Positions 40,969 through 46,517 of a DNA stretch of 49,851 bases are shown in pieces. Source of the stretch: Candidatus Hydrogenedentota bacterium (GTDB lineage: Bacteria; Hydrogenedentota; Hydrogenedentia; Hydrogenedentales; CAITNO01); assembly GCA_012730105.1 (NCBI GenBank), contig JAAYBJ010000287.1, positions 1 to 49,851 on the forward strand, given 5' to 3'. The position numbers and the translations under genes were made by a program. The notes beneath the pieces were generated by a model, which worked only from the letters and a program-made list of their open reading frames with translations, was not told the DNA's origin and did not search any database. The stretch's first letter is position 1, and every line of letters begins with the position of its first letter.

Positions 40969-41898
40969 TCACAATCCTAGTGTTTTTAAATATTCCCGGT
41001 TTCGCCGTGCGCTTTCCTTGGGTGCGCCCATGCCGGGCAATACATCCTGTTCCACGGTAATAAATCCCTTATATTTACTCTCGCGCAACCACTGGGTGGT
41101 CCAAGCGAAGTCCACACAACCTTTGCCAAGTTCACAGAACACTCCCTGACCCACGGACTGAAAATAGTCCCAACCTTCCGCTGCGGACCGTTCGGCAACT
41201 CCGGGCTCGCAATCCTTGTAGTGCATGTGTGTAATACGGGAGGCGAACCGTTCCAGCCCGGTACGAGTCAGACTACCATCCCGGTCGCCCGCGCCAAAGG
41301 CATAGTGGCCGGTATCAAAAACCAGGCCGAGCAATTCAGTGCTGGTATGTTTCAACAGCGTCTCTATCTCAGCTGGTGTTTCCACATAGCCCGCGCAGTG
41401 GTGATGAAAGCCTACAGGGAGGCCGGTCGCTTCCTGCACCGCACGCGCGACCGCTTCAACGCCCTGGGAGAACACACGCCAGCCGTCATTGTCCAACCCC
41501 ATGGCAGATGTCACCCGGCCGGCATTCGCCGTCCTTTGCGCCACCGTCCCGTTTTCGTCGGCAAGAATGATCATCGGCGCATGGTCTGGTGATGCCGCGC
41601 CGGCCAGCAGGTGCGCCACTTTTACCGCGGCTTCCGCCCCGGACGCGTGAGCCGTAACATTGATAAAACGCACGGGCACAAAGGCGCCAACCATGGTAAC
41701 ACCTCGCTGCTCCAAAATCGTTCGCAGTGCCGCCGGCTCAGTGGGCATGAACCCCCAGTCCCCCAGTTCCGTGCCGGTATACCCCGTCTCGACCAGTTCG
41801 TCCAGCATGCGTTCACAAGTGAGCGGCTGACCGCCCAGTCCCTCGAATTCCAGGCTGCCCCAGGAACAGGGCGCATTAGCGATGCGTATGGTTGTCAT
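40969..41898 (-). CDS. iolE: Inosose dehydratase-like TIM-barrel protein (IolE-like)
   Basis: 309 residues of the xylose-isomerase-like TIM barrel superfamily, probably catalysing dehydration of 2-keto-myo-inositol. IolE-like landmarks are visible: IANAPCSWGSLEF at the start, YTGTELGDWGF, the HHH motif VGFHHHCAGYVETP, metal ligands Asp in LVFDTGHYAFG and His in THMHYKDCE, GKGCVDFAW and the terminal Glu of ITVEQDV. The context (iolA upstream, iolG one base downstream) supports IolE. A sugar phosphate epimerase-like relative without dehydratase activity cannot be excluded by sequence alone. GAGGAAG lies just before the ATG. Confidence 0.82.
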   Translation of the reverse strand: MTTIRIANAPCSWGSLEFEGLGGQPLTCERMLDELVETGYTGTELGDWGFMPTEPAALRTILEQRGVTMVGAFVPVRFINVTAHASGAEAAVKVAHLLAGAASPDHAPMIILADENGTVAQRTANAGRVTSAMGLDNDGWRVFSQGVEAVARAVQEATGLPVGFHHHCAGYVETPAEIETLLKHTSTELLGLVFDTGHYAFGAGDRDGSLTRTGLERFASRITHMHYKDCEPGVAERSAAEGWDYFQSVGQGVFCELGKGCVDFAWTTQWLRESKYKGFITVEQDVLPGMGAPKESARRNREYLKTLGL

Positions 41899-41926: not shown

Positions 41927-42014
41927 ATGGACGTACTGGACCAAATGGACTGAATGGACAGAAATATGGGTTGTCTTCACTGTTCATTGTGTCCATCATG
42001 TCCATACAGTCCAT
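41927..42014. repeat. 9-bp-phased inverted array (element A)
   Basis: Four hexamers ATGGAC, CTGGAC, ATGGAC, ATGGAC start at 41927, 41936, 41945 and 41954, exactly nine bases apart, with variable three-base spacers. After a 22-base centre, four inverted hexamers GTTCAT, GTCCAT, GTCCAT, GTCCAT start at 41982, 41991, 42000 and 42009, again nine apart. The arms can pair as helices of six separated by unpaired threes. It fills most of the space between iolA and the iolE-like gene. It may be an mRNA-stabilising or attenuating hairpin, or a protein-binding array. See also element B. Confidence 0.85.
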
Positions 42015-42032: not shown

Positions 42033-43505
42033 TTAGAATTTCCGGCTCCATTCTTTGGGCCAGCGTTCCACGACAATCTTGGTTTCGGTGAAGAACTCCA
42101 CCGCGTGCTCCGCCTGGCCGTGCAAGTCGCCAAAGAAACTGTCCGCCCAGCCGCTAAAGGGGAAAAAGGCCATAGGCGCGGCGACGCCGATATTGACGCC
42201 TATGTTGCCGGCGTGGGTCTCGGTGCGAAACTGCCTTGCGGCGGCGCCGCTGGCTGTAAAAATACAGGCCATATTGCCGAAAGCCCGGTCGTTGACCATG
42301 GCAATGCCTTCTTCCAGCGTATCGACATGCATCAGGCTGAATACAGGACCGAAAATCTCTGTCTTCGCGATTTCACCCTGGGGCGGCACATGGTCCAGCA
42401 GCGTGGGAAACATATAACTGCCCTGTTCGTAACCGGGCACCTTTTGCCCACGTCCATCCACCGAAACCGAGGCGCCTTCAGCCTCGGCAACGCCAATAAG
42501 TTTTTCAATACGCGCTTTGCTCTCCGCGCTTATCACCGCGCCCGTTTCCACGCCTTCCTCCAGGCCATACCCAACCTTGCGAGCCTGTGTGGCTTCGCTG
42601 AAGCGTTTCCGGAAAGGCTCCTTCGCCTCCCCAACAGTAATGCCCACCGACAAGGCCAGGCAGCGCTGTCCCGCGCAGCCGTAGGCGGAATCCGCCAGGA
42701 TGCGCGTGGCGGTCTCCATGTCAGCGTCGGGCATGATCAGAACGGGGTTTTTGGCGCCGCCCTGGCATTGTGCGCGTTTGCCGTTCGCGGCGCTCCGCGC
42801 ATAAATAGCCCGCGCGGCCGGTGTGGAACCCACCATGCTGACAGCGCGCACAACCGGATGATCCAGGATGGCTTCAACCGTATCCCGGGCGCCGTTCACC
42901 AACTGCAGCACCCCGGGTGGCAAACCGAGATGATCAATCAGTTCGAAAACGCGTTGCTGGGTCACGGGGCATTTTTCGCTCGGCTTCACAATCATACAGT
43001 TGCCCGTGGCCAGCGCGTAAGGCAGAAACCAGAAAGGAATCATGCCGGGGAAATTAAAGGGGGCGATCATCGCCGTGACCCCCAGGGGCTGGCGGAACAT
43101 GTGCTCATCAATGCCCCGGGCAATGTCCTCGTTGTTGCGTCCCTGCATCAACATGGGAATGCCGCAGGCCACCTCGACATTCTCGATGGCGCGCCGCAAT
43201 TCCCCCTTGCTTTCATTGAAGGTTTTGCCACACTCTTCCGTGCAGGTCCTCGCCAGAAAGTCCAGATTCTCCTCCAACAACTGCTTGAGTTTAAACAGGT
43301 ACTGAATGCGGTCGGGGGCAGGCACGCGCCGCCATTCCCTGAAGGCCACAGCAGCGGCCTTTGCCGCCGTGTCCACCTCTTGCGCCGAAGACAAAGGTAC
43401 ATCGGCGAAATGCTCCGCTGTACCGGGATTGATAATGGGAAGACATTCCGTTGCCTTCGATTCAGTCCACTGACCATTGACGTAGTTTAGTAATCGTTGG
43501 GTCAT
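42033..43505 (-). CDS. iolA: CoA-acylating methylmalonate/malonate-semialdehyde dehydrogenase
   Basis: 490 residues, cytoplasmic aldehyde dehydrogenase fold converting malonate semialdehyde to acetyl-CoA (or methylmalonate semialdehyde to propionyl-CoA) with NAD. The oxyanion Asn is N151 ([13 protein letters not shown]), the catalytic Cys is C282 ([13 protein letters not shown]) and the CoA-acylating subgroup shows [11 protein letters not shown] in place of the usual ELGGK glutamate, as expected. This is the last iol step. It is flanked on both sides by 9-bp-phased repeats (41927-42014 and 43554-43634), which separate it from the iolE-like and iolD genes. Confidence 0.93.
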
Positions 43506-43553: not shown

Positions 43554-43634
43554 GTAGGACGTGCAGGACCGGTAGGACAGGTAGGATACTACGAAACCAC
43601 GCGTAAAACGGTCCTATGCGTCCTACATATCCTA
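43554..43634. repeat. 9-bp-phased inverted array (element B)
   Basis: Units GTAGGAC, GCAGGAC, GTAGGAC, GTAGGAT start at 43554, 43563, 43572 and 43581, each nine bases apart with two-base spacers. After a 23-base centre, GTCCTA, GTCCTA, ATCCTA start at 43611, 43620 and 43629. The arms are inverted, as in element A, but the hexamer is TAGGAC rather than ATGGAC. It lies between iolD and iolA and ends 12 bases before the iolD stop. The shared nine-base phasing with a different core suggests a repeat family rather than coincidence. Confidence 0.85.
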
Positions 43635-43645
43635 CCACCATGAAT

Positions 43646-45514
43646 TTAAAAGAAATACCGTTCTTTGGCGCGCATTTTTTCCCACGCCTTTCGGGCTTCG
43701 CGCACGGATTCCATTTCGCTGACTTCCGCCACGTGCACATCCCACCAGCTGTCGTAGCCGGGCACGCCCACGTACCGGTCATTCTGGATATAAATGACGG
43801 TGGTTTTGTCGATGGATTCCGCCGTTTTTATAGCCTTGGCAAAATCGTCGTAAGTCATACATTCTATGACATGGGCGCCAAGACTCCGCGCGTTGGCGGC
43901 AAGGTCCACCGGCAGTACCACGACATTCTCTCCCGCATCATCCCCGGGCAGCACGTCGTCCTTTGGATAGACATAGCGCGTGGCAAAACCTTCCTGGCCC
44001 AGCGAGCGGCTGAGCCCGCCGATGCTCTTGTAGCCGAAATTATCGAAGATAATAATCGTCAACTTATAGCCTTCCTGAATGGAAGTGACTATTTCAGCGT
44101 TCAGCATCAGGTAGCCGCCGTCGCCCTGCATGATGTACACTTCCCGGTCCGGGGCGGCCATCTTGACGCCCAGCCCGCCGGCGATCTCATAGCCCATACA
44201 ACTGTACCCGTATTCGAGGTGAAAGTTCTTTGGGTGCCGGGAACGCCATAGTTTGTGCAGGTCACCCGGTAGCGAACCTGACGCACATACCATGACGCTC
44301 TCCGGTTTGCTCAGTTCATTTACTGCGCCGATCAGCTCGCCCTGGCTGGTCAACGGGGTATTACGTATCGCGTAGATACGGTCGACCTCGGCCTCCCAGG
44401 CATCGTGCAGTTCGCGTGCCTTGGTTTCGTATGCGGGGTCGGCCTGATAGCCCTGCAGTATTTCCACCAGGTCCTTCAGCACTGTCTGGGCATCGCCGAC
44501 CAACGGCAGGGCACAATGCTTGTGCGCGTCAAATTCCGCCACATTGATGTTGACAAAGCGAATAGCCTCGTTCTGAAACGCTGTTTTGGAAGCCGTGGTA
44601 AAGTCGCTGTACCGGGTGCCGATGCCAATAACCAGGTCGGCGTCGTGCGCGATGCGGTTGGCGGCCAACGTGCCGGTCACGCCGATAGCGCCGAGGTTCA
44701 GCGGGTGGTCGTAGCGCAGGCTGCCCTTGCCGGCCATGGTCTCGCCCACGGGGATGCCTGTCTGGTCCACAAAGGCCTTGAGCGTGTCGCAGGCGCCGCT
44801 GTATATGACACCGCCGCCCGCCACAATCAGGGGACGTTTCGCAGCCTTAATCCATGCCGCCGCCCGCTGTAAGGCAGCCTTGTCCGCGCGGACGCGAGGA
44901 ATGTGCCAGACCCGCTTACGGAAAAATTCCTCGGGATAGTCAAAGGCCTCGGCCTGCACGTCCTGCGGCAGCGCCAGGGTCACCGCGCCCGTATCTGCGG
45001 GACTGGTCAGAACACGCATTGCTTCCGGCAGTGCACAAAGAATCTGGTCCGGCCGGTTGATGCGGTCCCAGTAACGGCTGACCGGCTTGAAACAGTCATT
45101 AACGGAAATGTCCTGGCTCTGGCCAGATTCCAACTGCTGCAGCACGGGGGCCACATTGCGCCGCGCAAAGATGTCCCCCGGCATCAGCAGCACCGGCAGA
45201 TGGTTGATGGTCGCGCCCGCCGCACCGGTCACCATATTCGTAGCCCCTGGACCGATCGACGAAACGCACGCGAAGGTCTGCATGCGGTTCTTCATCTTCG
45301 CGTACCCCGCCGCCGCATGCACCATAGCTTGCTCATTGCGAATCTGATAATAGCGGAAGTCCGGGTTCTGCTGCAGCGCCTGGCCGATACCGGCTACGCA
45401 TCCGTGACCGAAGATACCGAAACAACCGGCAAAAAACTGTTGCTCCTCGCCGTCCCGTTCGACATACTGTTGCTTCAGAAACCCTATCACTGCCTGCGCC
45501 ATCGTCAATCGCAT
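43646..45514 (-). CDS. iolD: 3D-(3,5/4)-trihydroxycyclohexane-1,2-dione hydrolase
   Basis: 622 residues, thiamine diphosphate-dependent enzyme opening the ring of the diketo-inositol to 5-deoxy-glucuronate. The N-terminal ThDP half holds the proton-relay Glu region YYQIRNEQAMVHAAAGYAK; the C-terminal half shows the ThDP/Mg motif QGDGGYLMLNAEI (about 460-472) continuing to IIIFDNFGYKS. The family-specific GCFGIFGHGCVAGIGQAL is at residues 28-45. Length is normal. GGAGGA lies before the ATG at 45514. It should be transcribed from the 125-base space before it, since a terminator ends the lipoprotein gene upstream. Confidence 0.94.
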   Translation of the reverse strand: MRLTMAQAVIGFLKQQYVERDGEEQQFFAGCFGIFGHGCVAGIGQALQQNPDFRYYQIRNEQAMVHAAAGYAKMKNRMQTFACVSSIGPGATNMVTGAAGATINHLPVLLMPGDIFARRNVAPVLQQLESGQSQDISVNDCFKPVSRYWDRINRPDQILCALPEAMRVLTSPADTGAVTLALPQDVQAEAFDYPEEFFRKRVWHIPRVRADKAALQRAAAWIKAAKRPLIVAGGGVIYSGACDTLKAFVDQTGIPVGETMAGKGSLRYDHPLNLGAIGVTGTLAANRIAHDADLVIGIGTRYSDFTTASKTAFQNEAIRFVNINVAEFDAHKHCALPLVGDAQTVLKDLVEILQGYQADPAYETKARELHDAWEAEVDRIYAIRNTPLTSQGELIGAVNELSKPESVMVCASGSLPGDLHKLWRSRHPKNFHLEYGYSCMGYEIAGGLGVKMAAPDREVYIMQGDGGYLMLNAEIVTSIQEGYKLTIIIFDNFGYKSIGGLSRSLGQEGFATRYVYPKDDVLPGDDAGENVVVLPVDLAANARSLGAHVIECMTYDDFAKAIKTAESIDKTTVIYIQNDRYVGVPGYDSWWDVHVAEVSEMESVREARKAWEKMRAKERYFF

Positions 45515-46487: not shown

Positions 46488-46517
46488 TGATAGATTTGAG
46501 AATGATAGATTTGAGAA
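46488..46517 (+). repeat. Perfect 15-bp tandem duplication
   Basis: TGATAGATTTGAGAA occurs twice in direct contact (46488-46502 and 46503-46517). No coding frame is affected. It is probably a replication-slippage product in the region before the toxin-antitoxin pair. Confidence 0.85.

What the first reader, a model, noticed from the sequence alone, without database searches (positions are those of the whole stretch)
41927..42014. Element A: inverted array of GGAC hexamers at strict 9-bp period between iolA and iolE
Eight hexamers in two opposed arms all start exactly nine bases from the next, with variable three-base spacers and a 22-base centre. The cores are conserved while the spacers are not, so selection or copying acts on the hexamer and its phasing. 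A nine-base step does not match the DNA helical turn, which favours an RNA structure (stacked six-base helices with three-base internal loops) or a modular repeat-binding protein. I know no named element with this layout.
Basis: seen in the sequence. Interest (0 to 1): 0.72.

Follow-up and report, generated by a model that had tools for sequence, protein, structure and literature searches.

The report
Protein-paired inverted nonamer repeat arrays
The odd repeat between two inositol genes is one copy of a large family of scattered DNA repeats, found in many bacterial phyla, in which each repeat type goes with its own version of a small helical protein of unknown function; it looks like a new kind of selfish repeat-and-protein system.

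Summary
In detail: eight hexamers (seven with GGAC) at exact 9-bp steps in two facing arms around a 22-bp centre, 41927-42014; 0 of 5000 shuffles match it. A second array, type TAGGAC, lies at 43555-43634 between iolD and iolA. The array belongs to a genome-wide family (56 hits against 2 for a reversed control), and such inverted arrays occur in many phyla. Similar arrays flank, or lie in frame inside, genes for 'four helix bundle suffix' proteins (TIGR04258, unknown function): 50 of 60 genes against 11 of 136 ordinary ones. They sit in the disordered linker and the ends, never in the helices. Hexamer type, and even period (9 or 10 bp), follow the protein tree almost perfectly: 9 changes where 8 is the minimum; shuffled mean 40.8. 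One gene-plus-arrays cassette sits at three unrelated sites in three sister species, with homology ending at the arrays. The iol spacers of relatives hold no array, other types, or other repeats. Best reading: arrays are recognition sites of cognate S23-fold proteins and spread as a selfish system, like REPIN-RAYT but with an unrelated protein. Pairing is shown; binding and the moving enzyme are inferred.

The parts
41927..41959 (+). Element A, left arm: ATGGAC gta CTGGAC caa ATGGAC tga ATGGAC
41960..41981 (.). Element A, 22-base centre
41982..42014 (-). Element A, right arm (reads ATGGAC on the - strand): GTTCAT tgt GTCCAT cat GTCCAT aca GTCCAT; innermost unit degenerate
43555..43634 (.). Element B, same architecture, type TAGGAC: TAGGAC CAGGAC TAGGAC TAGGAT / GTCCTA GTCCTA ATCCTA, 23-base centre, in the iolD-iolA spacer
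42033..43505 (-). iolA-like CoA-acylating methylmalonate-semialdehyde dehydrogenase (context)
   Evidence: TIGR01722 above cut-off
40969..41898 (-). iolE-like gene (context)
   Evidence: TIGR04379 E 1.2e-53 but below its cut-off
43646..45514 (-). iolD (context)
   Evidence: TIGR04377 above cut-off

Best explanation
Element A is a stand-alone (gene-less) copy of a two-part system. Part one is a gene for a 'four helix bundle suffix' protein (TIGR04258, S23/23S-rRNA-IVP fold, here called 4HBS). Part two is its cognate array: a hexamer repeated every 9 bp (10 bp in some clades), usually as two facing arms. SHOWN: each 4HBS clade has its own hexamer and period; the arrays surround and enter its genes; gene-less copies are scattered between genes; a gene-plus-arrays cassette occurs at different sites in sister species with homology ending at the arrays; the iol copies are absent or of other types in relatives. 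INFERRED: an oligomeric 4HBS protein grips one hexamer per subunit, which sets the step; it brings the two arms together and thereby enables copying or moving of the DNA between or beside the arms. Solo arrays such as A (cognate of the ATGGAC gene on C7) and B (cognate of the TAGGAC gene on C271) are non-autonomous products that settle in tolerated places such as operon spacers. The cutting or joining enzyme, and whether DNA or RNA is bound, are unknown.
For: Type and period follow the protein tree: 9 changes (minimum 8), shuffled mean 40.8, 0 of 200 shuffles as low; flank-only labels 7 changes (minimum 6) against 24.2. In-gene type equals flank type in 34 of 34 genes. Arrays in or within 400 bp of 50 of 60 genes, against 11 of 136 ordinary genes, odds ratio 57; 29 in the linker, none in the helices, and the linker is predicted disordered. 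Genome level, type-specific: TGGAC arrays with the RTGGAC clade, odds ratio 20; TCGGAC arrays with the TCSGAC clades, odds ratio 12; most mismatched pairs not significant. The G000 sample has no arrays of three types whose gene it lacks. Cassette of about 870-885 bp at three sites, and the same radical-SAM gene without it in G001. iol spacers empty or with other repeats in relatives. Arms face each other 26 to 1. One Lentisphaerae genome holds many copies with shared centre and flanks but varying unit number and spacers.
Against: No insertion was seen directly; no target-site duplication or fixed ends at A or B. No known catalytic domain in 4HBS; foldseek only finds S23 proteins. 7 of 60 relatives have 10 or more TGGAC hits but no TIGR04258 hit (incomplete assemblies or lost genes are possible). 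Array number also correlates with Y1 transposase number and genome size, and neither that table nor one search is corrected for kinship. TATAGGAC arrays against the TAGGAC/TGGGAC clade is weak by Fisher test (p 0.3). The G000-G002 hexamer conservation could also mean a site-specific function at iol.
Confidence: 0.68

Rival explanations
1. 4HBS proteins are regulators and the arrays are their operators (or mRNA sites); array A regulates iolE and downstream genes, and arrays in the 4HBS genes are for autoregulation. Spread is slow and selected for regulation.
For: Cognate pairing is equally expected; arrays are mostly intergenic (19 of 23 between genes, 2 at contig edges); hexamers conserved at the orthologous iol site; Geobacter authors proposed 'global regulator binding sites' for similar paired tandem repeats (PMC2700814).
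Against: The iol spacers of relatives hold no array, other array types or unrelated repeats; arrays occur in convergent, co-directional and divergent spacers; cassette at three unrelated sites.
Confidence: 0.18
2. The arrays act as RNA hairpins (stacked six-base helices with 3x3 loops) in the polycistronic mRNA, for processing, termination or stability; proteins are secondary.
For: Both elements fold with z -3.7 to -4.0; arms face each other 26 to 1; elements lie inside an operon.
Against: Spacers pair only slightly above chance; single-armed arrays are common; hairpin function does not predict hexamer and period following a protein clade; no Rfam family.
Confidence: 0.07
3. The arrays are carried by ordinary transposases (Y1/RAYT or DDE) and the 4HBS genes are passengers in array-rich places.
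For: Y1 domains in 50 of 60 relatives and correlated with array number; in G000 one AAGGAC array type rides in a MITE with terminal inverted repeats CCTAAAAACGGC and 5-bp target duplications.
Against: A passenger gene would not share hexamer and period with its clade across phyla; the MITE ends were not found around element A; arrays are inside the 4HBS reading frame.
Confidence: 0.06
4. Plain slippage minisatellites without partner or function.
For: Unit number varies among copies, and some arrays are long and nearly uniform.
Against: Exact period, facing arms, conserved hexamer with free spacers, protein pairing.
Confidence: 0.01

Closest known systems
REPIN-RAYT systems (PMC3116915)
   Same: Short inverted-repeat doublets scattered between genes, each class tied to a cognate gene next to which the repeats lie, with repeat-protein co-evolution; several classes per genome.
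   Different: Protein is an S23-like four-helix bundle with no Y1/HUH domain; units are 6-bp hexamers every 9 or 10 bp in arms of 2-16 units, not one palindrome with a GTAG tag; arrays also lie in frame inside the gene; a gene-plus-arrays cassette occurs at several sites, whereas RAYTs are described as not self-mobile.
23S rRNA intervening sequences with S23 protein (PMC4990558)
   Same: Selfish-looking element with inverted repeats and an S23-family four-helix-bundle gene of unknown function (homopentameric in Xanthomonas).
   Different: Not in rRNA; protein has an extra linker and suffix; repeats are tandem hexamer arrays dispersed genome-wide.
Paired tandem octa/heptanucleotide 'global regulator binding sites' of Geobacter metallireducens (PMC2700814)
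   Same: Tandem short repeats in pairs on opposite strands with variable distance, many copies, between and within genes.
   Different: Other units and periods (8, 7); no partner protein named; link to 4HBS or its relatives not tested here.
MITEs, including BrickBuilt of Porphyromonas gingivalis (PMC4596501)
   Same: Non-coding, dispersed, intergenic, containing tandem repeats.
   Different: Element A has no recognised terminal inverted repeats or target duplication.
bAvd of diversity-generating retroelements (recalled, lead only)
   Same: Four-helix-bundle nucleic-acid partner protein.
   Different: No reverse transcriptase or template repeat was looked for or seen here.

Membership tests
REPIN-RAYT | Cognate gene encodes a Y1 (HUH) transposase | tested here: not met
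   Pfam scan of five 4HBS proteins gives 23S_rRNA_IVP only (below its cut-off) besides one chance hit; no Y1_Tnp
REPIN-RAYT | Repeat is a 20-40 bp palindrome with a GTAG/CGTC tag | tested here: not met
   Units are hexamers with GGAC at 9-bp steps
REPIN-RAYT | Inverted doublets; repeat class co-evolves with its gene | tested here: met
TIGR04258 4HBS-array system (the partner gene, elsewhere in the genome) | Gene with TIGR04258 and TIGR02436 domains carrying the same array type in or beside it | tested here: met
   C7 gene with ATGGAC; C271 gene with TAGGAC (only TIGR04258 scanned for this one)
S23/23S rRNA IVS | Lies in a 23S rRNA helix | tested here: not met
   Element lies in an iol operon spacer; no Rfam match above its gathering score
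S23/23S rRNA IVS | Encodes an S23-fold protein | tested here: inconclusive
   Element A encodes none; 4HBS model best matches 2RLD (S23 family), probability 1.00 but E 0.25; PF05635 below cut-off
MITE | Terminal inverted repeats with target-site duplication | tested here: not met
   The G000 MITE ends were not found at A and no duplication is visible in its flanks; met by AAGGAC copies in G000
Transposable element | Unit found at different sites with sharp homology ends | tested here: met
   ATTGAC gene-array cassette at three sites; not shown for element A itself
Transposable element | Catalysis of movement by the encoded protein | not testable with these tools
   No assay; no known catalytic domain

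The most novel reading that the evidence does not exclude
A class of mobile elements built on an S23-type four-helix-bundle protein with no known recombinase fold, in which an oligomer reads tandem hexamers; sequence and step (9, 10, perhaps 11 bp) are set by the protein clade, so that the family is a natural set of re-specified repeat-binding modules.
Probability: 0.35. Interest if true: 0.92.

Novelty: categorically new. Interest (0 to 1): 0.82.

Why it matters
It gives a partner to a widespread protein family of unknown function (TIGR04258), links it to thousands of unexplained intergenic repeats in many phyla, and makes the old question of what S23-type proteins do directly testable: mix each protein with its own and with other clades' arrays. 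If the proteins move their arrays, it is a new kind of mobile element; if they only bind, it is a new repeat-reading family with a built-in specificity series.

Tried and rejected
A raw gene-presence against array-number correlation (Spearman 0.59) was set aside as weak proof, since Y1 transposase number and genome size correlate almost as well; the type-specific and tree tests replaced it. RNA covariation was not pursued because spacers scarcely pair. Rfam: nothing relevant. PADLOC, PHROGs, phage records: nothing; plasmids: one Prevotella hit. Paper searches for the repeat or for TIGR04258/TIGR02436 found nothing; the library holds only open papers, so prior description is not excluded. Polarity counts were discarded because most of those loci had been chosen with a facing-arm pattern; one search repeats the count without them. 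An element count that allowed any GGAC pair had a high reversed control, so stricter three-unit or typed patterns were used afterwards.

Full report
CHECK. Seven of eight keep GGAC. The layout is far beyond chance in the window, in its spacer and in the genome (56 hits against 2 for the reversed pattern). Periods 7, 8, 10 and 11 give almost nothing. A second element with TAGGAC units lies at 43555-43634 between iolD and iolA. Both spacers are inside an iolD-iolA-iolE-iolG operon.

FAMILY. The genome has arrays of several hexamer types: ATGGAC, GTGGAC, AAGGAC, AGGGAC, TAGGAC, TGGGAC. 45 of 60 relatives have TGGAC-type arrays, one with 577 hits. A few of those hits may be chance or coding repeats.

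PARTNER GENE. Copies on contig C7 lie just upstream of, and in frame inside, a gene. The same gene type is beside or around the array in more than a dozen loci from several phyla. NCBIfam names it: four helix bundle suffix domain-containing protein (TIGR04258 with TIGR02436, both above cut-off in five of five tested). Pfam's 23S_rRNA_IVP matches weakly. The window's genome has eight such genes on eight contigs; 37 of 60 relatives have at least one.

PAIRING. I fetched all these gene loci and took from each the commonest array hexamer and period around the gene. On a tree of 91 proteins built without the linker columns, nine type groups need nine changes (least possible eight; shuffled mean 40.8; 0 of 200 shuffles as low). 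ARGGAC, ATTGAC and the 10-bp CACGGAC group are each one side of a well supported branch. Labels taken only from outside the gene give 7 changes (least 6) against 24.2. In-gene and flank types agree in 34 of 34 genes. Of 60 genes, 50 have a three-unit array inside or within 400 bp, against 11 of 136 ordinary genes of like size. The arrays fall in the linker (29 genes), the N-terminal (13) and C-terminal (9) ends and the flanks, never in helices 1-3 or the suffix helix. An AlphaFold model (pLDDT 82.7, pTM 0.73) shows helices at 17-36, 42-64, 69-96 and 157-190 with residues 135-151 disordered, the stretch that the array encodes; its best structural match is the S23 protein 2RLD (probability 1.00, target TM-score 0.61, E 0.25). 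At genome level TGGAC arrays go with the RTGGAC clade (odds ratio 20) and TCGGAC arrays with the TCSGAC clades (odds ratio 12), while most mismatched pairs are not significant (not corrected for kinship; local arrays of the genes contribute). The exception is TGGAC arrays with the TAGGAC/TGGGAC clade (p 0.005).

MOBILITY. The ATTGAC gene occurs in G000, in G003 and twice in G002; homology covers about 870-885 bp and ends in the arrays. G003 and one G002 copy share a site; the other two sites have unrelated neighbours. The gene left of the G000 copy is present in G001 without the cassette. At the iol locus, the iolA-iolE spacer holds ATGGAC arrays in G000 and G002, a TCGGAC array in G004, a decayed array in G010, another repeat family in G009, G014 and G016, and nothing in G025 and G036. 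The iolD-iolA spacer holds TAGGAC arrays in G000 and G002, none in G007, G009, G010 and G036, a TCGGAC array in G025 and an ATGGAC array in G031. Loss and gain cannot be told apart at each site. Between G000 and G002, hexamers of element A differ at 1 of 42 sites and spacers at 9 of 15: constraint, re-homogenisation or separate insertion of the same type. In one Lentisphaerae genome about eleven copies share centre and flanks but vary in unit number and spacers.

FORM. Neighbouring opposite arms face each other 26 to 1 in the loci not chosen for that feature. Among 144 inverted arrays, facing spacers pair 0.99 of 3 against 0.79 shuffled; 8% pair fully. Both window elements fold better than shuffles (z -3.7 to -4.0), as expected from inverted arms.

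MECHANISM. The simplest account of clade-specific hexamer and step is direct recognition of the array by the protein. S23 proteins can be homopentameric rings of four-helix bundles (stated in PMC4990558), and common arm sizes are 2-5 units; one unit per subunit is an inference. That arrays crowd around and into their own gene, that the gene with its arrays changes place, and that gene-less arrays are scattered between genes, fit a selfish element with non-autonomous copies. How the DNA is moved is open: no nuclease or recombinase domain is known in the family, and host enzymes may do it. In this reading element A is a passenger of the iol operon, not its regulator.

KNOWN. The logic is that of REPIN-RAYT (PMC3116915), but the Y1 domain was tested and is absent. 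The fold is that of S23 proteins of rRNA intervening sequences, which have been called selfish elements and possible mobile elements (PMC4990558), but the place and the repeats differ. Paired tandem octamers and heptamers in Geobacter (PMC2700814) may be related; this was not tested. Searches of the open literature for the family names or the repeat gave nothing, which does not prove that none exists.

LIMITS. Array labels come from the same loci as the genes, so near-copies inflate the tree statistic, although clades span phyla. No binding or movement was observed. The 'categorically new' rating rests on failing the defining tests of the nearest families and on an open-access literature search only; if one counts any gene-plus-dispersed-repeat system as one kind, it is a new variant of that kind.

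Noticed in passing
window 43555-43634: Second inverted array (TAGGAC type) in the iolD-iolA spacer; cognate type of the 4HBS gene on contig C271.
   Followed up: yes
L248 3642-3814, L255 18618-18781, L214 10714-10877, L219 7207-7379 (G000): A 164-173 bp MITE with terminal inverted repeats CCTAAAAACGGC and 5-bp target duplications (TTCAA, TTCAA, TTTAA, ATAAC) carries an AAGGAC inverted array; the transposase was not sought.
   Followed up: partly
L186, L187, L189 (iolA spacers of G016, G009, G014): Another dispersed repeat (CATTGCGAGCGAAGCGAAGCAATCTC-like) occupies the spacers that hold arrays in G000.
   Followed up: no
L179 1160-1320 (G024): Array with an 11-bp step (TCTTGCCCG...) near a 4HBS gene: perhaps a third period.
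   Followed up: no
L343 3200-3290 (Prevotella nigrescens NZ_CP082843.1): Possible 9-bp CTAGGA-type array just downstream of a 4HBS gene on a 568-kb plasmid/chromid in Bacteroidota.
   Followed up: no
L146, L166, L173, L176, L178: One 4HBS clade ends in a cysteine-rich stretch (CPxCGxPM...FWGCxxYPxCKG) that looks like a topoisomerase-type zinc ribbon; not tested with a profile.
   Followed up: no
L057 about 1570-1870, L124 about 1865-2160: Sequence upstream of 4HBS genes reads like ends of type I restriction genes (hsdR, hsdS); by eye only.
   Followed up: no
window 46488-46517: Two exact 15-bp tandem copies of TGATAGATTTGAGAA.
   Followed up: no
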